Shown: piece after piece, positions 1 through 8,605 of the stretch
Layout of the letters: the number at the start of each line of letters is the position of its first letter
How positions within the stretch are numbered: the first letter of the stretch is position 1
Source: an uncultured Bacillota bacterium
GTDB taxonomy: Bacteria; Bacillota_I; Bacilli_A; Erysipelotrichales; Erysipelotrichaceae
Assembly: GCA_900321955.1 (NCBI GenBank)
Contig: ONXX01000047.1
Span: 1-8,605 of the forward strand
Direction of reading: 5' to 3'
Length of the DNA stretch: 8,605 nt
Notes under the pieces: model-generated
What the model saw: the letters and a program-made list of their open reading frames with translations, nothing else
The model's database searches: none
What the model was told of the DNA's origin: nothing
Made by a program: the position numbers and the translations under genes

Positions 1-154
1 TGGAGAAACCGATCAGGCCGAACACCAGCGTGCCGACAAAACCGCCGGCCAAGCCCAAGAGTACATATAACCACCAAGGACCCGCAAGATGCATCAGATT
101 AGCGGCAACATAACCGAATGCTGCACTGATAAGTAAAGAAATCAGTAATCCCAT
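1..154 (-). CDS. GlsB/YeaQ/YmgE-like small membrane protein, partial (C-terminus outside window)
   Basis: The first 51 residues are visible, starting MGLLISLLISAAFGY from the ATG at 154-152; the frame stays open to the window edge. The sequence is almost entirely hydrophobic: one membrane segment at about residues 2-20, a short loop ending GPWW, and a glycine-rich second segment (LLGLAGGFVGTLVFGLIGF). This glycine-rich pattern and the length match the GlsB/YeaQ/YmgE (transglycosylase-associated) family of small stress-linked inner-membrane proteins, whose exact role is unsettled. An AGGAGG ribosome binding site (complement of 164-170) sits about 9 nt before the ATG, and a TATAAT promoter lies just upstream, so this is probably its own transcription unit. 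The assignment is by pattern from memory and only the N-terminal part is seen; it could be another small two- or three-helix membrane protein. Confidence 0.6.
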   Translation of the reverse strand, partial: MGLLISLLISAAFGYVAANLMHLAGPWWLYVLLGLAGGFVGTLVFGLIGFS

Positions 155-185
155 AATTTCAAACCTCCTTTTGGATACAAGAAAA

Positions 186-214
186 ATTATACAACTTTAT
201 GAAAAATCTTGCAC
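186..214 (-). promoter_or_regulatory. Sigma-A-type promoter for the GlsB-like gene
   Basis: On the minus strand a perfect TATAAT (186-191) is preceded, after 17 bp, by GTGCAA (209-214), which matches three of six -35 consensus positions. It falls between the DUF1146 stop and the AGGAGG of the GlsB-like gene. The spacing gives a leader of about 25 nt. The weak -35 box is the main doubt. Confidence 0.6.
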
Positions 215-224
215 AAAAAGGACC

Positions 225-428
225 TTATCGATAGAAATGATACATCAGAGCGATCATGAAACTGCCCATCAGATAAGCCAAAGCGCAGCAGATCACAAAA
301 TACAGGACCTGGGCCTGAAAGATTTTGCCCTGCTTGATGAAACGGTTGAAATCCAGAGCGCTCATTCCCAACAGTGCCAGAAGGAAGCAGAAAAAGTAAA
401 TGATCACCCGCAGATAGAAATCAAGCAT
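225..428 (-). CDS. DUF1146 (YwzB-like) family membrane protein
   Basis: This is a 67-residue protein beginning MLDFYLRVIIYFF. It has two membrane segments (about residues 5-23 and 40-63) joined by a short polar loop (ALDFNRFIKQGK, then QAQVLYF). The loop pattern of a basic/aromatic stretch followed by K-x-x-Q-A-x-x-L-Y is what I recall for DUF1146, a small Bacillota protein family of unknown function often found beside ATP synthase or murein genes. An in-frame start 12 codons upstream (464) exists, but it would lie deep in nagA. The ATG at 428 has a GGGGGAGAGGG-type ribosome binding site directly before it and overlaps the nagA stop by 8 bp, so I chose it. It is the last gene of the tsaC-ppaC-nagA operon and probably depends on translational coupling. 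No hairpin terminator is visible after its stop. Confidence 0.8.
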   Translation of the reverse strand: MLDFYLRVIIYFFCFLLALLGMSALDFNRFIKQGKIFQAQVLYFVICCALAYLMGSFMIALMYHFYR

Positions 429-1560
429 CGACCCTCTCCCCCTTGATGTAGACATCTTTGACATTCAATTCATCATCCATGATGACCAGATCTGCATACT
501 TGCCTTTTTCAACCGTACCGAAACGCTTGTCCAATCCGTAGAATTTAAAGGCATTATAGCTTGAATACAATAACAGATCGGTATACTTGGCTCCTAAGCC
601 ATATAAAACTTTCATCTCATCATTGATGGAAACCACACTGCCGGCAAAATGACCGTCGTGGGAAATGAAAGTCGTTCCCTTCTTGGTGCATGGCTTGGAC
701 AAAAAAACATATTCGCCATCCGCAAGACCCCGGGCAATCGAAGAATCGCTCACCAGCATGATCCTGTGACGATCGATATGATCCAGAACCAGACGCAGGA
801 CATTTTCTTTAATATGGTTGCCGTCCCCGATCAATTCGACCTGCCATCTGTTCATAAAGGCGCAGTTGACTAACGTGATATCGCGGTGATGCAGAGAACG
901 CATCGCATTAAACAGATGGGTGAAGCCTTCCACGTTTTCATCGAGATCTTCGAAAACCGCATCGGAGTGACCGCACATGACCTTGATGCCGCGCTTATGC
1001 AGCATCTCGCCTAGCCGCTTTGCCCCCTCCAGTTCGTAGGCGATGGTCATCTGACGGATCTTGTCGCTGGCATTTAAGAAACGTTCCAGCATCGCCTCAT
1101 CCGGCTTGATGAAGCGTTTCGGATCTCCCATCCCCAGATGTTTTTCGGAAAGGAAAGGCCCTTCCATGTGAATGCCCATGAAGCGGGAAGCAGGAGCGAC
1201 ATAATCGTTCAGGATGCCAAGCTGCTTCAGGTATTCTTCCTCACTCAGATCATAGGAAAGAGAAGCCAGAAAGCTCGTGGTCCCGTCCTTGGCAAATTCC
1301 TTGCTGATGGAATCCATCGTATCCTGATCCGCATGGTCAAAGCTCATGCCCTTGATGCCATGGGTGTGGCTGTCAAAAAAGCCGGGCATGACTAAAGAAC
1401 CTTTTAAATCGATACAAGGGATGTCTTCACTGATGTTTTTTATCTTATCGGTCTGCGGAAAGACCTCTTTGATCGTTTCACCTTCAATAAAGACGGCACC
1501 ATCGATGTATTCGCGGTTGCCGTCAACGATGACGTGGGCGTGTTTCAGTAAAAGCGGCAC
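421..1560 (-). CDS. nagA: N-acetylglucosamine-6-phosphate deacetylase
   Basis: This 379-residue cytoplasmic amidohydrolase removes acetate from GlcNAc-6-phosphate to give glucosamine-6-phosphate, feeding amino-sugar catabolism and cell-wall recycling. Length and motifs are those of the family. PGFFDSHTHG (residues 59-68) carries the H-x-H metal pair (His65, His67). HMEGPF supplies the metal-binding Glu133, CGHSDA His198, and THLFNAM His215. GDGNH includes His249, VSDSS gives the catalytic Asp272, and HFAGSVVSI forms the late substrate loop. The H-x-H pair makes it resemble the Bacillus enzyme rather than the single-metal E. coli one. The start is GTG (1560-1558), immediately after the TAA of the upstream pyrophosphatase gene, with GGGAG inside that gene's last codons as ribosome binding site, so translation is probably coupled. 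No nagB or GlcNAc transporter is in the window, and the operon partners are not amino-sugar genes. Confidence 0.95.
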   Translation of the reverse strand: MPLLLKHAHVIVDGNREYIDGAVFIEGETIKEVFPQTDKIKNISEDIPCIDLKGSLVMPGFFDSHTHGIKGMSFDHADQDTMDSISKEFAKDGTTSFLASLSYDLSEEEYLKQLGILNDYVAPASRFMGIHMEGPFLSEKHLGMGDPKRFIKPDEAMLERFLNASDKIRQMTIAYELEGAKRLGEMLHKRGIKVMCGHSDAVFEDLDENVEGFTHLFNAMRSLHHRDITLVNCAFMNRWQVELIGDGNHIKENVLRLVLDHIDRHRIMLVSDSSIARGLADGEYVFLSKPCTKKGTTFISHDGHFAGSVVSINDEMKVLYGLGAKYTDLLLYSSYNAFKFYGLDKRFGTVEKGKYADLVIMDDELNVKDVYIKGERVDA

Positions 1561-3177
1561 TTACTTCACTCCCAAAGCGGCGATCAGGCCCGGAAGCAGC
1601 TGCTTCTTGCGGGAGACCAGGCCCTCGACAAAGCCGTCCTTCTTTATGACAAAGGCATCTTTGACCACGTTCTTGCGGCTGCCGGCCGAAAGCACATAGG
1701 AACCGGAACCGTTCGGGTTTGTCAGCATGATGGCCATCAGGTCATAACCGCCGGACTTGCAGGCGTCTTCCATGTAGCGGCTGAGGTCCACCTTGAGGGC
1801 GTCATATTCCTCTTTGGACTTGCAGACAGCCTGGGAAAGACCGACCTTGTTGTCATCGATGGTGAATTCCTTGAAATCGTTGTAGACGATCTCAATGTGG
1901 CGCTTGTTGAGCAGAGATTCACTGTGATCGATCATGCCTTTGGAGAGTTCTTCGCCTGTTACACCGCAGATGGCTTCCAGTTTCTTTGCCGTCTCTATAT
2001 CTAACGGCGTGGTTGTCGGGGAACGGAAATTCATCGTATCGGAAACGATGGCACCCAAAAGGATACCCGCAAGCTTCGGTTCCAGCGGAACGTTTTGCGA
2101 GAAGAACTTGTTGGAAATGATGGTTGCCGTCGCACCGACCGCCATCGTGGTGATCGAGATCGGATTGTCCGATTCGAAACCGCCGAAACGGTGATGGTCG
2201 ACGATCTCAGTCACGATGCCTTCGTCGATATCATCGATCGCCTGCTTCTTTTCGTTATGGTCGACAAGGATGAATTCCTTGTGTTCGTAATTGAATAAGT
2301 GGTAACGGGAGATGGCACCGACCACCTTGCCCTCATTGTCTAAGACCGGGTAGGATCTGTGACGGGACTTGGCGATCTTCTTGGAAGCTTCATCCACCGT
2401 ATCGTTGATATTGAAGAAATCGATCTTCTCCTTCGGGAGCATGATGTACTCGATCGCCGGTGTCTGATAGATCAGACGGGTGATGTAAAGCGGCGTGAGT
2501 TCGGTCGTCACGATGGTCGCTTCGGCATCTCTGGCCAAAGATAAGACCTGTCTTGAAATCGGCGAAGAGGTGCACACCACCAGCATCGTCGCGCCTAGCT
2601 GAAGACAATACTGCAGCTTGTCGTCCTCGTTTCGCAAAAGAACGATACTGTCATCTTCCACGTTGGACTTCAGGCTCGGGAACATGTGCATCTTGCCGGA
2701 GAGCTTATGTGTTCCTCTGAGGACCAGTTTGCCTTCCAGGATCCTGACGATATCATCGATCTCGATGTGCTGGATGATCTTGGCCAGCTCCTCATCGCTC
2801 TTGGTCCACATATAGGTCAGATCGTCCAGAGTGACGATGCCTTCCAGATGTTTCTTCTTATTGACGACGATCAGGCCTCTGTTCTTCAGCTTCTTGACCT
2901 TGTCCAGAGCGTCCTTCATCGTCATTTCCTTGTATGCCGTAGCCGCCTTATCCATTTCGATCTCGCGCAGGATCGACTTGGCTGTATACAGGCGCTTAGG
3001 ATCTTCGAAACCGAAACGTTCCAGCAGATATTCGGTCTCGCTGCTTACCGAACCGATCCTGCCGGCAACGGCATTGACGCCCTGCAGTCTCTTGAACTGC
3101 GCATAGGCGATCGCCGAAACAATGGCGTCGGTGTCGGGATTCTTGTGGCCTACGACATAAACGGGATTCTTTTTCAT
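1561..3177 (-). CDS. ppaC: Manganese-dependent (family II) inorganic pyrophosphatase with CBS and DRTGG regulatory domains
   Basis: The 538-residue protein hydrolyses pyrophosphate to two phosphates in the cytoplasm. The DHH-family catalytic part starts with GHKNPDTDAI (residues 10-19; His11, Asp15, Asp17) and continues with VDHNE (305-309), the DHH motif VDHHR (326-330) and SDTMNFRSPT (379-388). The DHHA2 lobe ends with the substrate-binding SRKKQ (522-526). Inserted between about 66 and 300 are a first CBS half (EGIVTLDDL at 112-120), a DRTGG-like domain (about 150-245) and a second CBS half (SYPVLD...VVGAIS, 275-290). In characterised relatives AMP or ADP inhibits through the CBS domains, and ATP or diadenosine polyphosphates activate; that is family knowledge. 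The frame is open to 3339, but the ATG at 3177 matches the family N-terminus, has GAGGAG upstream and overlaps the tsaC stop as ATGA. The upstream 54 codons are tsaC in another frame. Confidence 0.95.
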   Translation of the reverse strand: MKKNPVYVVGHKNPDTDAIVSAIAYAQFKRLQGVNAVAGRIGSVSSETEYLLERFGFEDPKRLYTAKSILREIEMDKAATAYKEMTMKDALDKVKKLKNRGLIVVNKKKHLEGIVTLDDLTYMWTKSDEELAKIIQHIEIDDIVRILEGKLVLRGTHKLSGKMHMFPSLKSNVEDDSIVLLRNEDDKLQYCLQLGATMLVVCTSSPISRQVLSLARDAEATIVTTELTPLYITRLIYQTPAIEYIMLPKEKIDFFNINDTVDEASKKIAKSRHRSYPVLDNEGKVVGAISRYHLFNYEHKEFILVDHNEKKQAIDDIDEGIVTEIVDHHRFGGFESDNPISITTMAVGATATIISNKFFSQNVPLEPKLAGILLGAIVSDTMNFRSPTTTPLDIETAKKLEAICGVTGEELSKGMIDHSESLLNKRHIEIVYNDFKEFTIDDNKVGLSQAVCKSKEEYDALKVDLSRYMEDACKSGGYDLMAIMLTNPNGSGSYVLSAGSRKNVVKDAFVIKKDGFVEGLVSRKKQLLPGLIAALGVK

Positions 3178-3779
3178 TTTATGATCTCCTCTATCTCCTG
3201 TAGTGTGATCGGCCCCTGCCTTAGGAGCGTGAGCGGATCCTTGCTGACATCGATGATCGTCGATGCCTCTACACCTCTGGCATCCTCGCAGACGATGGCG
3301 TCGATCTTCCCCTCCATGCATGAAGCCACATCTTCCCACTTCAAGAGGGATCCCGCACCGGAAACATTGGCGCTGGTCACCATGATCGGTTTGCCGATCA
3401 AAGAGATCAGATCCAGGATGTAATCATCATCCGGCACTCTGATTCCGATCGTCTTTTTGCCCATCGTCACATAGTCATCGATGTTCTCTCTCTTATTGAA
3501 AATCAAAGTCAGCGGACCGGGGGTAAAGGTCTGAATGATCTTTTCCGCCTGTTCACTGACCAAGGCAACCTCTTTGATCATGTCCAAAGAATTGCACATC
3601 ATCGGCAAAGGTTTATCAAAACTGCGGCCTTTGGCGCCGTAGACTTTGTCCATCGCCTTTTTATCCATCATGCAGGCCAGACCAAAGACCGTATCCGTCG
3701 GAAAGGCCACGATCCCGCCTGCCAGAAGAATATCGACGATTGCCTTTTTCTCCATCTTTGTATACCTGATGGTTTTCAT
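3174..3779 (-). CDS. tsaC: L-threonylcarbamoyladenylate synthase (TsaC/YrdC/Sua5 family, short form)
   Basis: The 201-residue protein condenses L-threonine, bicarbonate and ATP to threonylcarbamoyl-AMP plus pyrophosphate, the first step of t6A formation at position 37 of ANN-decoding tRNAs. YrdC-domain motifs are complete: AFPTDTVFGL (25-34), KGRSFDKPL (50-58), PGPLTLI (87-93), GIRVPD (112-117), VTSANVSG (134-141), STIID (173-177) and LRQGP (186-190). There is no C-terminal Sua5 domain, hence the short form. It opens a four-gene operon. Its stop overlaps the ppaC start by 4 bp, which puts a pyrophosphate producer next to a pyrophosphatase. The ATG at 3779 lacks a good ribosome binding site and lies 6 nt after a TATAAT. 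Met9 (ATG at 3755-3753) is an alternative start with AGG 9 nt upstream. I prefer 3779 because the N-terminus MKTIRYTKMEKKAI matches the usual family start. Confidence 0.93.
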   Translation of the reverse strand: MKTIRYTKMEKKAIVDILLAGGIVAFPTDTVFGLACMMDKKAMDKVYGAKGRSFDKPLPMMCNSLDMIKEVALVSEQAEKIIQTFTPGPLTLIFNKRENIDDYVTMGKKTIGIRVPDDDYILDLISLIGKPIMVTSANVSGAGSLLKWEDVASCMEGKIDAIVCEDARGVEASTIIDVSKDPLTLLRQGPITLQEIEEIIK

Positions 3780-3785
3780 ACTTTC

Positions 3786-3815
3786 ATTATACGTGCTTTA
3801 GACCTTAAAATTCAT
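3786..3815 (-). promoter_or_regulatory. Promoter of the tsaC-ppaC-nagA-DUF1146 operon
   Basis: A perfect TATAAT on the minus strand (3786-3791) is followed by GAAAGT and then directly by the tsaC ATG. With standard spacing the transcription start would fall on the A of the ATG. The -35 region is poor: the best candidate is ATGAAT (3810-3815) with an 18-bp spacer. No extended -10 TG is present. Confidence 0.5.
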
Positions 3816-3889
3816 GGCATTTGTCCGGGCAGTACCCTTCTTTTTCAAAGAAATCATATCCTGCAGGCCGCATCAGTCCAAACGATAAA

Positions 3890-3898
3890 TGCTACAAT
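3890..3898 (+). promoter_or_regulatory. Extended -10 promoter for the UPF0158-GNAT / Nif3 operon
   Basis: TGCTACAAT is an extended -10 (TGN followed by TACAAT, five of six consensus). I see no good -35 box 16-18 bp upstream, which is tolerable for extended -10 promoters. The transcript would begin near 3905 and carry an AAAGGAA ribosome binding site about 8 nt before the ATG at 3932. Confidence 0.5.
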
Positions 3899-3931
3899 TG
3901 AATCGTAGGAAGAATTGGAAAGGAATCATTC

Positions 3932-4864
3932 ATGCAGATCAAACTTCAGGAAGTCGTCGACGCCATCGATTCGACCGACGTCAATACACAATACTATTAC
4001 TACATTCCGGAAGAAAGGATCATCCTCAAGGATGATGATGAACCCATCAAGGAAAAGTACCTGATCCCTTTGCCAAGCCATAAGCAGATCGATGACTACG
4101 GCACGATGAAGGCCTTCATTGAAGAAAAGACCGACGGGGAAGCCAAAGAATGGCTGGAAGAATGCATCAAGGGAGCCGGCGCTTTCCGCCGTTTCCGCTC
4201 CACCCTGGAACGCTTCGCCTTAAGCGACAAGTGGTACGATTATCTGCAAAACGCCCATGAGGATATCGCCGTCGACTGGTGTGAATACTACGGCATCGAA
4301 TATCTGGAAGACAGGCCTTTTGCCTCGCCTGTCCAGATCGAACCTTTGAAGAAAAAAGAAACGGCCAAACACAACTACCGCTTCATCACCATCGACAAGG
4401 ACAACGTCTATTCCCTGGCCTATCTGACAGCTGACTTCCGCAAGGCCCTTTCCTCTTTGAAAGGGATCAAAAGCGAAACCGATGTCGATGAGGCCGTGGA
4501 AGAGCTGCGCTACTATCTGTCCAAGGGCTATCCGATCTATGCCGTCTCCGACAACGGCCGCTACATCGGCTACATCGTCTGCCGCATCGAAGATGATGTG
4601 GTCTGGCTGGAATCGATCTACGTCAAACCGGAATACCGCCGCAAGGGTGTGGGAAGGATGCTGTTTGACAAGGCGGAAGCCATCGCCAAAGAACACGACA
4701 ATCCGACCTTATACCAGTACGTCCACCCCAACAATGATGCGATGATCTTATTCTTAAGCCATATGGGCTATGACGTCCTCAATCTCATCGAGATCCGCAA
4801 GGCCTACCCGGAAGAAGAAAACGATACGACCTATACCATAGGCGAACACACATACAGATATTAA
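3932..4864 (+). CDS. UPF0158-like domain fused to a GNAT N-acetyltransferase
   Basis: This is a 310-residue cytoplasmic protein in two parts. Residues 1-125 resemble the UPF0158 family of unknown function: IPLPSHKQIDDYGTM (45-59), then GAGAFRRFRSTLERF (81-95), WYDYL (101-105) and VDWCEYYGIEY (114-124). Residues 148-290 form a GNAT acetyltransferase domain. Its core is the strand WLESIYVKPEYRRKGVGRML (225-244), where RRKGVG is the pyrophosphate-binding R/Q-x-x-G-x-G motif A that holds acetyl-CoA. HPNNDAMILFLSHMGYD (265-281) is a typical motif B. An acidic tail follows. The acceptor substrate cannot be read from the sequence. It is the first gene of a two-gene operon, 12 bp before the Nif3-like gene. 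Arg codons are CGC, CGT, AGG or AGA with no CGG, a useful native reference. The GNAT call is firm; the UPF0158 label comes from remembered motifs. Confidence 0.85.
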   Translation: MQIKLQEVVDAIDSTDVNTQYYYYIPEERIILKDDDEPIKEKYLIPLPSHKQIDDYGTMKAFIEEKTDGEAKEWLEECIKGAGAFRRFRSTLERFALSDKWYDYLQNAHEDIAVDWCEYYGIEYLEDRPFASPVQIEPLKKKETAKHNYRFITIDKDNVYSLAYLTADFRKALSSLKGIKSETDVDEAVEELRYYLSKGYPIYAVSDNGRYIGYIVCRIEDDVVWLESIYVKPEYRRKGVGRMLFDKAEAIAKEHDNPTLYQYVHPNNDAMILFLSHMGYDVLNLIEIRKAYPEEENDTTYTIGEHTYRY

Positions 4865-4876
4865 GGAGAGAGAATT

Positions 4877-5728
4877 ATGCTGATCAGTGAAGTTATTCAA
4901 AGCGTTAAGGATTACTGCAAAGGCAGCTGGCTTGGCCAAAAGATCGATGACGACAAGACCAGAGACAAGGTCCTTTACGGTCCGACCGATAAAGAATGTA
5001 CCGGCATCGTCACAACGATCTACGCCACGCCCGACGTCATACGTAAAGCCCATGAACTGGGCGCCAATCTGATCATCGCCCATGAAGCGCTGTTCTGGAA
5101 CCATGGCGATCATCAGGAATGGCTCAAAGAATCACAAAACAAGACCTATCTGGCAAAGGCAAAGCTGATGGATGAGTACGGCATCACCGTATGGCGCTTC
5201 CACGACTACATCCATTCCGGTATTCCTTATAAAGATGACTACATCGACGGCATCTTCTATGGCTTAGCCAAGGAGACCGGCTGGGATGACGCCATCATCA
5301 ACAACAACGACATTTCCGGTGCCCTGTATCTGGAATGCGAAGACACCACACCGAGGAAAGTGGGAGAACTCATTAAAGAAAAATGGCACCTCAGCGGCCT
5401 CAAATGCATCGGCAACATGGACGCCAGGGTCAATAAGATCATGGTCTGCGGCCACGTCAACGAAGGCGGCGATTCCAACTCCTTGATCAGAAAAGTCGAT
5501 CAAAACGACATCAACCTGCTCATACCGCTGGAACTCATCGACTTCACTCTCAGTGAATACGTCAAAGACTCATCACAGCTGGGCTTTAACAGAGCGATCA
5601 TCGCTCCGGGTCATTTCAACGTCGAAGAACCCGGCATGAAATACATGGAACAGTGGATGGACAAGGCCCTGAAAGAGTCGATCAAAACGACCTATGTCCA
5701 GGCAGGAGACATGTATACCTTCCTGTAA
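4877..5728 (+). CDS. Nif3-like dinuclear metal center protein (HE-type subgroup)
   Basis: This 283-residue protein belongs to the Nif3/DUF34 family, widespread metal-binding proteins whose physiological reaction is not settled (often labelled GTP cyclohydrolase 1 type 2 without proof). Visible landmarks are GIVTTIYATPDVIRKAHELG (43-62), IIAHEALFWNHGD (66-78; His69 and Glu70), WRFHDYIHSG (106-115; His109, Asp110, His113) and APGHFNVEEPGM (243-254). The last has the H-x-x-x-E metal pair His246/Glu250. HE in place of the usual HH, together with RFHDYIH, marks the subgroup whose members read HEPTF or HEPLFW in my recollection. The ATG at 4877 has AAGGAGAG 5-6 nt upstream and lies 12 bp after the GNAT stop, so the two are co-transcribed. 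A strong terminator follows 4 bp after the stop. Confidence 0.87.
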   Translation: MLISEVIQSVKDYCKGSWLGQKIDDDKTRDKVLYGPTDKECTGIVTTIYATPDVIRKAHELGANLIIAHEALFWNHGDHQEWLKESQNKTYLAKAKLMDEYGITVWRFHDYIHSGIPYKDDYIDGIFYGLAKETGWDDAIINNNDISGALYLECEDTTPRKVGELIKEKWHLSGLKCIGNMDARVNKIMVCGHVNEGGDSNSLIRKVDQNDINLLIPLELIDFTLSEYVKDSSQLGFNRAIIAPGHFNVEEPGMKYMEQWMDKALKESIKTTYVQAGDMYTFL

Positions 5729-5732
5729 AGAC

Positions 5733-5754
5733 AAGCGCCGCAAGGCGCTTTTTT
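5733..5754 (+). terminator. Rho-independent terminator of the GNAT-Nif3 operon
   Basis: A 7-bp perfect stem, AAGCGCC (5733-5739) with GGCGCTT (5744-5750), encloses a GNRA tetraloop, GCAA. Four more T follow, then CTT. It begins 4 bp after the Nif3-like stop. The T-rich tail runs into the tRNA promoter. Confidence 0.9.
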
Positions 5755-5756
5755 CT

Positions 5757-5785
5757 TATACAGAACATTAGAATTAATATATAAT
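5757..5785 (+). promoter_or_regulatory. Promoter of the tRNA-Ala gene
   Basis: TATACA (5757-5762, four of six -35 positions) and a perfect TATAAT (5780-5785) are separated by 17 bp. The predicted start is about 5792, a few bases before the mature tRNA 5' end at 5798. The -35 box lies directly behind the upstream terminator. Confidence 0.75.
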
Positions 5786-5797
5786 AGTAATGTTGAT

Positions 5798-5873
5798 GGG
5801 GCTTTAGCTCAGCTGGCAGAGCGCCTGGTTCGCAATCAGGAGGTCACCGGTTCGATCCCGGCAAGCTCCACCA
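5798..5873 (+). tRNA. tRNA-Ala, anticodon CGC
   Basis: The 76-nt cloverleaf folds cleanly. The acceptor stem is GGGGCTT with AAGCTCC and contains the G3-U70 pair that identifies alanine tRNAs. The D stem is GCTC/GAGC. The anticodon stem is CCTGG/TCAGG around TTCGCAA, with CGC at positions 34-36. The T arm is ACCGG-TTCGATC-CCGGC. The discriminator is A73 and the 3' CCA is encoded. CGC reads the alanine codon GCG. The outer T-stem pair 49-65 is A-C rather than Watson-Crick. It has its own promoter and terminator, so it is a single-gene unit. Confidence 0.96.
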
Positions 5874-5886
5874 TCTTTGCTGAAAC

Positions 5887-5910
5887 GCCGTCAGAAAGAC
5901 GGCTTTTATT
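5887..5910 (+). terminator. Terminator of tRNA-Ala
   Basis: GCCGTC (5887-5892) pairs perfectly with GACGGC (5898-5903) around the loop AGAAA, followed by TTTTATT. It lies 13 bp after the tRNA CCA end. The ATG of the following 48-codon ORF begins right after the T-rich tail. Confidence 0.85.
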
Positions 5911-6057
5911 ATGCATACATTTGAAGAACTCTATCAGAAATACCTTGAAGAAGGATACAGCGAAGAAGAAGCCCGCGACAAGGCAAGGGAAGAACTGGAA
6001 GAAGAGAAACACCATGCCTGGTTTCTTTTTCATGAATTCATTGACCAAGAAAAATAG
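5911..6057 (+). CDS. Small acidic protein of 48 residues, function unknown
   Basis: The ORF runs from ATG at 5911 to TAG at 6055-6057 and begins MHTFEELYQKYLEEGYSEEE. It then continues with a highly charged helical stretch (EEEARDKAREELEEEK, residues 18-33) and an aromatic end with several histidines (HHAWFLFHEF, 34-43). The regular i/i+4 spacing of E, K, L and A suggests one or two helices; no membrane segment or signal is seen. In favour of a real gene: biased, protein-like composition, and a stop codon inside a strong terminator hairpin shared with the convergent gene. Against: no recognisable Shine-Dalgarno, because the ATG sits directly behind the tRNA terminator tail. Transcription may come from read-through of the tRNA unit. 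I do not recognise the family. Confidence 0.55.
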   Translation: MHTFEELYQKYLEEGYSEEEARDKAREELEEEKHHAWFLFHEFIDQEK

Positions 6058-6078
6058 AAGCATTTCGCTTCTATTTTT
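6051..6078. terminator. Bidirectional terminator between convergent small genes
   Basis: A perfect 11-bp stem joins AAAATAGAAGC (6051-6061) to GCTTCTATTTT (6067-6077) with loop ATTTC. It has a run of five T on the plus side and four A on the left arm, so it can serve both strands. It contains the stop codon of the 48-residue ORF and touches the stop codon of the 73-residue gene. Confidence 0.85.
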
Positions 6079-6298
6079 AGTGATTGTATTTATGGAAGAA
6101 ATCATTGGCCTTCAGCAGTTCATCGTTTTCTTCATCATAGAAGTACTGATGGTCAAAGTAGATATCCATCTTAAGATATTCTTCATAGCTTAAGTCCGGC
6201 TCTTCCTTCTTCAAGTCCGCATAATCCTTTTTCCATACTTCACGCAAACCTTCCAGGCTGTTTTCTCTTGCTTCCATGTCTTGCAAAAACAGAATCAT
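6077..6298 (-). CDS. Hypothetical protein of 73 residues
   Basis: The protein starts MILFLQDMEARENSLEGLRE and is rich in E, D, K and aromatic residues (for example DIYFDHQYFYDEEND, residues 45-59). No membrane segment or signal peptide is convincing: only the first five residues are hydrophobic. The ATG at 6298 has a strong AAAGGAG ribosome binding site (around 6308-6314) with 9 nt spacing, which supports translation. It ends at the bidirectional terminator. An inverted repeat 25-42 nt before the ATG may regulate it. It faces the 48-residue ORF tail to tail; both are charge-rich and contain a Y-x-x-Y-L or E-Y-L stretch, but this is too little to claim homology. I do not recognise the family. 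Confidence 0.75.
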   Translation of the reverse strand: MILFLQDMEARENSLEGLREVWKKDYADLKKEEPDLSYEEYLKMDIYFDHQYFYDEENDELLKANDFFHKYNH

Positions 6299-6322
6299 AT
6301 TTTAAAGCTCCTTTCATTGATC

Positions 6323-6340
6323 ATGTCATCCTTTTGACAT
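6323..6340. promoter_or_regulatory. Operator-like inverted repeat upstream of the 73-residue gene
   Basis: ATGTCA and TGACAT form perfect 6-bp arms around a 6-bp spacer (TCCTTT on the plus strand). The dyad lies 25-42 nt upstream of the ATG at 6298. It could be a repressor site or, in RNA, a small hairpin just before the ribosome binding site. No confident -35/-10 pair was found around it. The same 146-bp gap (6299-6444) also holds the palindrome ATATCCGGATAT at 6373-6384 and the ATP-grasp terminator. Confidence 0.4.
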
Positions 6341-6411
6341 CTTCATTATTCATCTTTCAAGAAGGCCTGCATATATCCGGATATTGATATGCCCAATCGC
6401 TTTTAAGCAGC

Positions 6412-6438
6412 AAAAAAGCCTTTTTTCAAAGGCTTTTT
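6412..6438 (-). terminator. Terminator of the esterase/ATP-grasp operon
   Basis: On the minus strand AAAAAGCCTTT pairs with AAAGGCTTTTT over 11 bp (6413-6423 with 6428-6438) around a GAAA loop. The T tract forms the 3' arm and one further T. It starts 6 nt after the ATP-grasp stop codon. The near-symmetric A and T runs could also stop transcription from the other side. Confidence 0.85.
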
Positions 6439-6444
6439 GGAATA

Positions 6445-7626
6445 CTATTTCAATACGTCCTTGGCGAAGGCTCTGGCTTCCGGCTCGGTATCAAAGACAC
6501 CGATGAACATGTAGTTGGCCATTGCACCGGATAAAGCCTCTTCGACTCTTCCCTCTTCGACAAGATGGGTGCCGTATTTCTTGCGGATCTGCTCCGGCGT
6601 CAGTTCAAAGACCAGACCGTCTCTTCTGGAAGCGAAGCAGCATACGCCCTTGCCACCCTTGAAACGGTCGGTGCTGTCAAAGGCGATCATATCCGCCCAG
6701 ATCTCATAGACATCCGTGCCGCAGGCATAGTTCTTCATCGTCGGCGCGATACCGCCGCTTGGACGCATGTTGACTTCCAAGGCGACGATGTCTCCCTTCT
6801 TGCCGATGTGCTGATCCTTATTGAGGCGGAAAAATTCCATGTGGACCATACGGCTCTTGACGTTAAAGGCCTTGACCGTCTTGCGTCCGACTTCCAGAAG
6901 GTCTGCCGGTAAAACGGAACGCTCATAGAAGCAGGAATTGCCGTTGTCTTCGACCGTCTCCATCAGATTGGCGACGGTGACATTGCCGCTTTCAAACAGG
7001 ACCTTGCCCTTGGAGTTGACGATCGCATCGTAAGTCTCCACTTCGCCATAGATGTACTCTTCCATGATGTAGCTCAGATCCAGTTTGTTTTCAAAGAAGC
7101 GCTTGAGATCATCGCTATTCTTGATCTTGTGGGTATCGTTGGCACCGACACCGTTGTCCGGTTTGACAACGACCGGATAGCCGACTTCCGCAATGAACTT
7201 CTCACAGTTCTCGATCGTATCGACGATATGATACCTGGCAACCGGAATGCCGGCCTTGGTATAGTTCTTCTTCATCTTGGACTTGAACTTGACTGCTTCC
7301 ATATCTTTCGGATAGAAACCGGTCTTCATGTTGAAGTCTTCTCTCAATCTCGCGTCTCTTTCCAGCCAGTATTCATTGTTGGATTCCAGATAATCGATCT
7401 TGCCGTACTTGAAGGAGAAGAAGGCAACCGCCCTGTAGACTTCATCGTAATTCTCCAAAGAAGAGACCTTGTAGTATTCGGTCAGGGCATTCTTGAGCTC
7501 ATCGCTCAGCTCATCGTATGGTGCATCGCCGATGCCCAGAACATTGATTCCGTTGTTTTTTAAACGGTCACAGAAATTCCAGTGGTTTGCCGGAAAGTTC
7601 GGCGAAACATAAATAAAGTTCTTCAT
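6445..7626 (-). CDS. ATP-grasp domain protein, putative carboxylate-amine ligase
   Basis: This 393-residue protein has an N-terminal Rossmann-like pre-ATP-grasp part (MKNFIYVSPNFPANHW, then GINVLGIGDAPYDEL at 26-40). The ATP-grasp fold follows: YPVVVKPDNGVGAND (150-164) gives the ATP-binding Lys155 and glycine-rich loop, YIMEEYIYGEVETYDAI (186-202) the hinge and adenine contacts, MEFFRL (263-268) a metal-binding Glu264, and ALEVNMRPSGGIAP (282-295) Glu284, Asn286 and Arg288. Such enzymes activate a carboxylate as acyl phosphate and join it to an amine or thiol; the substrate here cannot be told. The start ATG (7626-7624) lies 4 nt after the esterase stop, with GAGGGGGA as ribosome binding site, so the two genes are co-transcribed and probably functionally linked. 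A hairpin terminator follows. Carbamoyl-phosphate-synthase-like and D-Ala-D-Ala-ligase-like relatives share the motifs. Confidence 0.88.
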   Translation of the reverse strand: MKNFIYVSPNFPANHWNFCDRLKNNGINVLGIGDAPYDELSDELKNALTEYYKVSSLENYDEVYRAVAFFSFKYGKIDYLESNNEYWLERDARLREDFNMKTGFYPKDMEAVKFKSKMKKNYTKAGIPVARYHIVDTIENCEKFIAEVGYPVVVKPDNGVGANDTHKIKNSDDLKRFFENKLDLSYIMEEYIYGEVETYDAIVNSKGKVLFESGNVTVANLMETVEDNGNSCFYERSVLPADLLEVGRKTVKAFNVKSRMVHMEFFRLNKDQHIGKKGDIVALEVNMRPSGGIAPTMKNYACGTDVYEIWADMIAFDSTDRFKGGKGVCCFASRRDGLVFELTPEQIRKKYGTHLVEEGRVEEALSGAMANYMFIGVFDTEPEARAFAKDVLK

Positions 7627-7630
7627 ATTG

Positions 7631-7978
7631 TTATTCCCCCTCTAACAGATATGGCAGGAAGTACGGAACCTGCTTGTACCACCACGGCCAGTCATGATTG
7701 ACGTCGCTTCCCCAGTAATCGACCCAGATATTGATGCCCAGTTCATGGAAACGCTTGTCCAGGTATTGTGTTGACCAAGGTTCTTCCCAGGCACCCATGC
7801 CGACACAGACGACGGCTTTGTTGTTATTGTAGCGGGCAATGAAAGGATGATCATTGCTCATGCCCGACATATAATCGGTGATCGAGTTGTTGTAAACCAC
7901 TTCATCCATATAATCACCGAAGAAATAAGAAGCGTGGTAAATTCCGCTCAGCGCCATGCAGCGGTCAAAGAGATCCGG
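7631..7978 (-). CDS. Putative esterase (alpha/beta hydrolase, esterase D-like), 5' part missing
   Basis: About 116 C-terminal codons are present. The readable homology begins PDLFDRCMALSGIYHASYFF and ends in VDYWGSDVNHDWPWWYKQ, followed by a stop at 7633-7631. The last motif carries the likely catalytic His (in NHDW), as in the putative-esterase family. The PDLFD...ALSGIY segment normally follows the GxSMG nucleophile elbow by some 20-30 residues. Upstream of about 7978 the frame stays open to 8101, but it contains no GxSxG and reads as an antisense shadow of the cyclic-nucleotide-binding gene. The ATG at 7957 is therefore an internal methionine, not the start. The gene is the upstream partner of the ATP-grasp gene. 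It is broken by deletion, insertion or misassembly, and as it stands could not make an active hydrolase. Confidence 0.8.
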   Translation of the reverse strand, partial: PDLFDRCMALSGIYHASYFFGDYMDEVVYNNSITDYMSGMSNDHPFIARYNNNKAVVCVGMGAWEEPWSTQYLDKRFHELGINIWVDYWGSDVNHDWPWWYKQVPYFLPYLLEGE

Positions 7979-7987
7979 GAAGAGGAG
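7958..7987. other. Breakpoint joining two unrelated sequence blocks
   Basis: Esterase coding (minus) is recognisable up to about 7978 and cyclic-nucleotide-binding coding (plus) from about 7961. Both genes are incomplete exactly here. The overlap of roughly 18 bp reads plausibly as PDLFDR on one strand and AVKEIR on the other. Arginine codon use and base composition change to the right. This is the signature of a join at a short shared sequence. No transposase end, target-site duplication or integrase site is seen. Confidence 0.7.
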
Positions 7988-8605
7988 TTTTTGGCATGCC
8001 TTTCTGAAGATCCCGGCAGGATCCTGAAAGTCATGTGCCGCATCGGCGAGTGGATCCGGATGCGGACAGATGACTATGAAGAAGCCTGCACCGTCATTTC
8101 AGAATTTCTTTCCGTGACGGAAGGAGCCGAAGAAAAAGAAAGCCTGGCGAAAAGGATCATAAAACTCGCGGCAGCTTACCGCCTGGGTCATAAGGGATGG
8201 GAAGCGAAGCCGCTCCGGCTGAGAGAACTGCCGAAAAAGGAAGCGGGCGACGGAAGCATACAGGCGTACCGCGCGGGAACGGTCATCTTCCGCGAAGGAG
8301 ACGCGAGCTCCTGTATGTACGCGGTGCACTGGGGCAAGGTCGGCATCTTTACGGCGCTCGGAACACCGGAGGAAAAAAAGCTCACTGAGATCATGCCGAA
8401 TCAGTTTTTCGGGGAGATGGGAATGATCGAGAATGTTCCGCGGAGCGCTTCCGCGGTCGTTCTGGAGGATGATACGGCAGTCGAGACCATTACCTCGGGA
8501 GACCTTGAGGTGCTGTTCCGGAGAAATCCCGCCGAAATAGACATGATCCTCGAGCATCTTTCTCATCGTCTCAGACAGCTGACGGCGGATTATGTGGATG
8601 CCTGC
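7961..8605 (+). CDS. Tandem cyclic-nucleotide-binding domain protein, both ends missing
   Basis: A plus-strand frame stays open through the last base of the window, giving 215 residues from 7961. Residues 100-200 form a complete cNMP-binding beta-roll. It includes AYRAGTVIFREGD (102-114), MYAVHWGKVGIF (119-130) and the phosphate-binding cassette FFGEMGMIENVPRSASAVV (149-167), with Gly151-Glu152 and Arg161-Ser162. Residues 1-43 (AVKEIREEEF to TDDYEEAC) align without gaps to residues 173-215 (AVETITSGDL to TADYVDAC), so they are the tail of a first, truncated copy of the same domain. I recall such tandem proteins in Lachnospiraceae-like Clostridia; no helix-turn-helix is visible in the part seen. 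At least six Arg codons are CGG, absent from the GNAT gene, suggesting another genome. No start codon can be assigned: the true start lies beyond the breakpoint. Confidence 0.8.

What the first reader, a model, noticed from the sequence alone, without database searches (positions are those of the whole stretch)
7958..7987. Two unrelated genes on opposite strands both break in the same 20-30 bp: likely chimeric join or rearrangement
The minus-strand esterase lacks everything before PDLFD, including its GxSxG nucleophile elbow. The plus-strand cyclic-nucleotide-binding protein lacks most of its first domain. Both homologies run into the same segment and overlap by about 18 bp that can be read sensibly on either strand. 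Arg codon choice (CGG appears repeatedly) and apparent GC rise to the right. A short shared word joining two genomes is typical of metagenome assembly error; a real deletion or insertion through microhomology is the alternative.
Basis: partly seen in the sequence, partly recalled or inferred. Interest (0 to 1): 0.7.

Follow-up and report, generated by a model that had tools for sequence, protein, structure and literature searches.

The report
Chimeric contig: two unrelated genomes joined
This stretch of DNA is almost certainly an assembly mistake that stitched together pieces of two unrelated bacteria through about 18-20 letters they share, cutting a gene from each; it is ordinary and says nothing new about biology.

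Summary
A minus-strand esterase (stop at 7631) and a plus-strand tandem cyclic-nucleotide-binding protein (running off the end at 8605) both break in one shared word, at least 7964-7981 (18 bp), at most 7963-7982 (20 bp). Left of it the window matches esterase DNA of six Erysipelotrichaceae relatives at 80-86% over 300 nt; beyond 7982 identity is 24-28%. Both parent alleles exist uninterrupted elsewhere: P0124 and P0198 match the left fragment at 116 of 116 residues and continue through the catalytic GCSMG elbow; P0004 (214 of 214) and P0003 (213 of 214) match the right fragment and continue upstream of it. The right-hand protein was found in 0 of 272 genomes of the left family (E<=1e-10) but in 75 of 115 genomes of one Clostridia-class family (E<=1e-20). 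GC and arginine codons also shift. The right-hand gene is in 0 of 51 loci around the left gene (9 of these have under 2 kb upstream). Best reading: assembly chimera through a short chance-shared word. Reads, which would separate artefact from a true recombinant, were not available.

The parts
7964..7981 (.). Shared word at the join, 18 bp certain from the two protein matches; at most 7963-7982 (20 bp). Reads FPDLFD on the minus strand and VKEIRE on the plus strand.
7631..7982 (-). C-terminal part (116 residues from FPDLFD, plus stop) of an esterase whose relatives carry PF00756. The ~136 residues upstream in relatives, with the GCSMG elbow, are missing. The listed ORF 7631-7957 starts at an internal Met.
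7963..8605 (+). Middle part (214 residues; P0003 residues 77-290) of a 323-residue protein with two cyclic-nucleotide-binding domains; cut at its 5' side by the join and at its 3' side by the end of the window. The listed ORF start at 7847 lies in the esterase side and is spurious.
1..7962 (.). Coherent Erysipelotrichaceae (Solobacterium-like) segment: amidohydrolase, DHH/CBS protein, Sua5/YrdC, GNAT, NIF3, ATP-grasp and esterase in the same order and orientation as in L002 and L003
7983..8605 (.). Foreign arm of 623 bp, probably from a Clostridia (Lachnospiraceae-like) genome

Best explanation
The window is part or all of a chimeric metagenome contig. A k-mer graph assembler reached a word of 18-20 bp that occurs in the esterase gene of a Solobacterium-like Erysipelotrichaceae species and, on the other strand, in a tandem cyclic-nucleotide-binding gene of an unrelated Clostridia species, and left the first genome for the second. 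Shown: two unrelated parent genes that are uninterrupted elsewhere, the shared word (on the right side from protein only), the taxonomic and composition switch, and the lack of the arrangement in the relatives examined. Inferred: that the record is a metagenome assembly, and that the join arose in assembly rather than in a cell or in library preparation.
For: DNA identity to esterase relatives is 80-86% over 300 nt left of the word and 24-28% over 300 nt beyond it, in the six relatives measured. Left alleles that continue past the join: P0124 and P0198, 116/116 identical to the window. Right alleles that continue upstream: P0004 214/214 and P0003 213/214, on contigs of 2309 and 2289 bases. The cNMP gene is in 0 of 51 loci around the left gene and in 0 of 272 genomes of the left family at E<=1e-10, against 75 of 115 genomes of a Clostridia-class family at E<=1e-20. 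GC and CGG shift. 0 of 355 fetched proteins share a 6-residue word with the 23-residue chimeric extension of the esterase reading (after the search). The foreign arm is 623 bp and runs to the end of the window.
Against: No reads were available. In a small empirical test (0.40 Mb against 0.06 Mb) 4 18-mers but no words of 19 or more were shared, though even-composition arithmetic gives about 10 shared 20-mers for genomes of 2.1 and 2.5 Mb. The right parent's DNA was not obtained. The left alleles P0124 and P0198 each lack an internal stretch away from the join, so neither is a full-length gene. Tetranucleotide distance of the right arm is exceeded by 2 of 147 left windows, and GC3 does not differ (0.645 against 0.589-0.708). 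Local alignments of 13 of 235 matching proteins run into the chimeric extension (start at residue 15 or before of P0001), at 40-70% identity over the whole alignment and with no shared 6-residue word; I read these as chance extension. 2 of 13 genomes searched by handle, both Erysipelotrichaceae, had weak single-domain matches to the cNMP protein.
Confidence: 0.88

Rival explanations
1. A chimera made in the laboratory: template switching during PCR or whole-genome amplification at the short shared word, so that real reads span the join although no cell carried it.
For: The join sits in a short shared word, which template switching is known to favour (recalled); both parents exist uninterrupted.
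Against: It would need enough chimeric molecules to win over the normal alleles in assembly (inference); nothing here points to it over an assembler error.
Confidence: 0.06
2. A real recombination in a living cell: microhomology-mediated joining put a Clostridia fragment into the Erysipelotrichaceae esterase gene.
For: Microhomology at the join. Several left relatives are named for ruminant gut sites, where Lachnospiraceae also live (recalled).
Against: The only Pfam match in the right-hand frame is PF00027. The cNMP protein has weak matches on 8 of 72,556 plasmid records and 1 of 50,697 phage records, none covering 80% of it. The other edge of an insert is not seen. The gene is in 0 of 51 relative loci and 0 of 272 genomes of the left family.
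Confidence: 0.05
3. A native neighbourhood: the two genes are normally adjacent and both were truncated by local mutation.
For: None found.
Against: In 30 of 32 loci with the esterase it continues upstream of the break for 139 residues or more; the other two are cut by their contig ends. None of 51 loci has the cNMP gene.
Confidence: 0.01

Closest known systems
Chimeric contigs of short-read metagenome assembly
   Same: Two genomes linked at a shared short word, a gene cut on each side, composition change. [quoted passage not shown]
   Different: The passages speak of closely related species and of sequencing errors; here the parents are from different families, so the word is most likely shared by chance.
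Esterase family PF00756 (left parent gene)
   Same: Relatives P0123, P0124 and P0198 carry PF00756 in the listing and align over the whole fragment.
   Different: The 108-residue ORF in the window has no Pfam match at E<=1e-3; the half with the catalytic elbow is missing.
Tandem cyclic-nucleotide-binding-domain proteins of Clostridia (PF00027)
   Same: Second domain matched over profile positions 2-88 of 89 (PF00027, E 5e-18); 99.5-100% identical to P0003/P0004.
   Different: First domain mostly missing at the join; C-terminus cut by the window end.

Membership tests
Metagenome assembly chimera | Each side matches a different sequence that continues past the join | tested here: met
   Left P0124, P0198 116/116; right P0004 214/214, P0003 213/214
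Metagenome assembly chimera | The sides come from different taxa | tested here: met
   Left: Erysipelotrichaceae/Solobacterium MAGs. Right gene: 0 of 272 genomes in that family at E<=1e-10 against 75 of 115 in a Clostridia-class family at E<=1e-20; the three listed hits with an organism name are Lachnospiraceae
Metagenome assembly chimera | Short exact word shared at the join | tested here: met
   18-20 bp; left side shown in relatives' DNA, right side inferred from protein only
Metagenome assembly chimera | Coverage step and no spanning read pairs | not testable with these tools
   No reads held; no genome held for the window
Real horizontal insertion or rearrangement | Arrangement present in an independent genome | tested here: not met
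   0 of 51 relative loci (9 have under 2 kb upstream); 0 of 355 fetched proteins share a 6-residue word with the chimeric extension
Real horizontal insertion or rearrangement | Mobile-element genes or a second edge of the insert | tested here: not met
   The right arm is one gene fragment to the end of the window; no plasmid or phage record with 80% coverage. A second edge beyond 8605 cannot be seen.

The most novel reading that the evidence does not exclude
A true cross-class recombinant in which a Clostridia fragment was joined by microhomology into an esterase gene of a Solobacterium-like bacterium.
Probability: 0.05. Interest if true: 0.3.

Novelty: not a real feature. Interest (0 to 1): 0.06.

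Why it matters
Only as a warning: the ORF calls at 7631-7957 and 7847-8605, and any claim that a cyclic-nucleotide-binding protein lies beside the esterase in this species, should not be used. The case shows that two genes on opposite strands breaking in one short word is a good sign of a chimeric contig.

Tried and rejected
Considered and rejected: native gene pair (relatives and alleles contradict it); plasmid or phage gene (only weak partial matches); a recurrent real junction (0 of 355 fetched proteins share a 6-residue word with the chimeric extension). Led nowhere: the window's own genome is not held. Two exact scans of viral contigs, one with 30 bases of the right arm and one with 21 bases at the join, found nothing. 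No genome of either parent species was found: best left DNA match 80% among 272 genomes, best right protein match 43% among 115 genomes of the family. The order-level search of 188 genomes gave no closer right-hand relative. The shared-k-mer test was too small to settle how often 20-mers are shared. In one search three small pieces (1-150, 230-430, 5913-6056) were translated out of frame or across stops, so only their positive matches are used. One paper search (71 papers held at least 3 of 4 terms, 15 listed); of one paper, PMC7299287, I saw 12 passages, of the others the listing only.

Full report
What is there. The window (8605 bases) carries, from left to right, an amidohydrolase (421-1560, minus; PF01979), a DHH/CBS/DRTGG/DHHA2 protein (1561-3174, minus), Sua5/YrdC (3174-3779, minus), a GNAT acetyltransferase (3932-4864, plus), a NIF3 protein (4877-5728, plus), tRNA-Ala(CGC) (5798-5873, plus), an ATP-grasp protein (6445-7626, minus), an esterase fragment (7631 to about 7982, minus) and a cyclic-nucleotide-binding protein fragment (about 7963-8605, plus).

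The left side. A scan of genome contigs with the ATP-grasp protein returned 51 loci; the 13 best-listed are Erysipelotrichaceae or Solobacterium MAGs, several named for ruminant gut sites. The left gene order and orientation are the same in L002 and L003 and, with longer gaps between some genes, in others such as L004, L012 and L016. Next to the ATP-grasp gene, 32 of 51 loci carry the esterase. In 30 of these 32 it continues upstream of the window's break for at least 139 residues; in L010 (102 residues) and L022 (4 residues) the contig ends first. The nucleophile elbow GxSxG is seen in 31 of 32. In the window it is missing.

The right side. The plus-strand fragment is identical over 214 residues to P0004 and differs at 1 of 214 residues from P0003, a 323-residue protein with two cNMP domains; residues 77-290 of P0003 are present in the window. 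The clusters of P0003 and P0004 are listed with 26 and 6 member sequences, on contigs of 2289 and 2309 bases, and both run beyond what the window can encode. One search gives no source for these two; the tool says it does so for proteins the window itself encodes, and I take it that the window's reading belongs to these clusters. The other 118 listed relatives (of 610 found) are 38-52% identical; the three with an organism name are called Lachnospiraceae. In whole genomes, 94 of 391 genomes of the class of G012 had any match at E<=1e-3, of which 5 had matches over nearly the whole protein (G071, G098, G148, G213, G324). In the family of G098 75 of 115 had a match at E<=1e-20, best identity 43%. 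In the family of the left relative L003 (G003), 0 of 272 had a match at E<=1e-10; the tool warns that an empty answer needs a positive, and the same query rings. Among 13 genomes searched by handle, 2 (G001 and G002, left relatives) had weak single-domain matches, E 1.8e-4 and 4.1e-4.

The join. By protein, the esterase reading extends to the Phe of FPDLFD (codon 7981-7979) and the cNMP reading starts at the Val of VKEIREEEF (7964-7966), so 18 bp belong to both. The next codons disagree (Ala against Glu, Leu against Arg), so at most one further base on each side can be shared: 20 bp (7963-7982). The 18-mer occurs in 5 of 32 relatives with the esterase and the 20-mer in 2 of 32; 7964-7983 in 0 of 32. 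Over six relatives, ungapped DNA identity is 80-86% over 300 nt on the esterase side and 24-28% over 300 nt on the other side. The right parent's DNA could not be fetched, so on that side the word is inferred from the protein.

Both parents run on elsewhere. P0124 (contig of 13,450 bases) and P0198 (contig of 6434 bases) match the window's esterase fragment at 116 of 116 residues and run on through YLRFPDLFD into the GCSMG elbow. Both lack an internal stretch further upstream (15 and 53 residues), away from the join. So a gene with the same residues crosses the break point in the normal way.

The chimeric reading is not found elsewhere. Searching the minus-strand reading across the join gave 123 proteins, 120 listed, none covering more than 88% of it. 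The gene of the right arm is in 0 of 51 loci; 9 of these have less than 2 kb upstream of the ATP-grasp match.

Composition. The right arm (623 bp after the word) has 55.4% GC, above all 147 overlapping left windows of the same length (38.7-53.5%). CGG is 6 of 16 Arg codons against 2 of 87 on the left (p=1.3e-4); without the codon inside the shared word 5 of 15 (p=6e-4). The synonymous-codon score of the right gene is the lowest of eight genes (0.022; next lowest Sua5 0.053), and its tetranucleotide distance exceeds 145 of 147 left windows; the two exceptions are AT-rich windows at 5851-6473 and 5901-6523. GC3 does not differ (0.645 against 0.589-0.708).

Can a word of this length be shared by chance? 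For genomes of 2.1 and 2.5 Mb with even composition, my arithmetic (2 x N1 x N2 / 4^k) gives about 150 shared 18-mers and about 10 shared 20-mers. In a small test, 25 left-type loci (0.40 Mb) and 16 right-type loci (0.06 Mb) shared 4 18-mers against 0.7 expected, and none of 19 or more (0.17 or fewer expected). A shared word of 18-20 bp between two genomes of a rich sample is thus expected, and it is about the size of the smallest k of iterative short-read assemblers (sizes recalled). Passages of PMC7299287 describe iterative small-to-large k and chimeric contigs from shared k-mers.

Verdict. Two fragments of unrelated genes from unrelated bacteria are joined at a word that both share. Assembly chimera is the likeliest cause (0.88); a laboratory chimera (0.06) or a true recombinant (0.05) cannot be excluded without reads. 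The feature is not biological news.

Noticed in passing
P0124, P0125, P0127, P0198 (relatives of window 7631-7982): Four protein clusters that look like the window species' esterase each lack a different internal in-frame stretch (15, 20, 23 and 53 residues). Clustering bias is a likely reason, since full-length alleles may fall into the 374-member cluster P0123; further assembly faults in this gene are possible.
   Followed up: partly
window 150-230: In L003 an extra ORF of 277 codons (16870-17703) lies between the small gene matching window 230-430 and the gene matching window 1-150; the window has only about 80 bp there. L004 and L012 show a gap of similar size by match positions.
   Followed up: partly
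window 5798-5873 and 5911-6057: tRNA-Ala(CGC) followed by a possible 48-codon Glu-rich small ORF read by eye; its conservation was not tested in the right frame.
   Followed up: no
L003 8463-9221: The neighbour just upstream of the uninterrupted esterase in L003 looks by eye like a second esterase-type gene with a GSSMG elbow (sequence).
   Followed up: no
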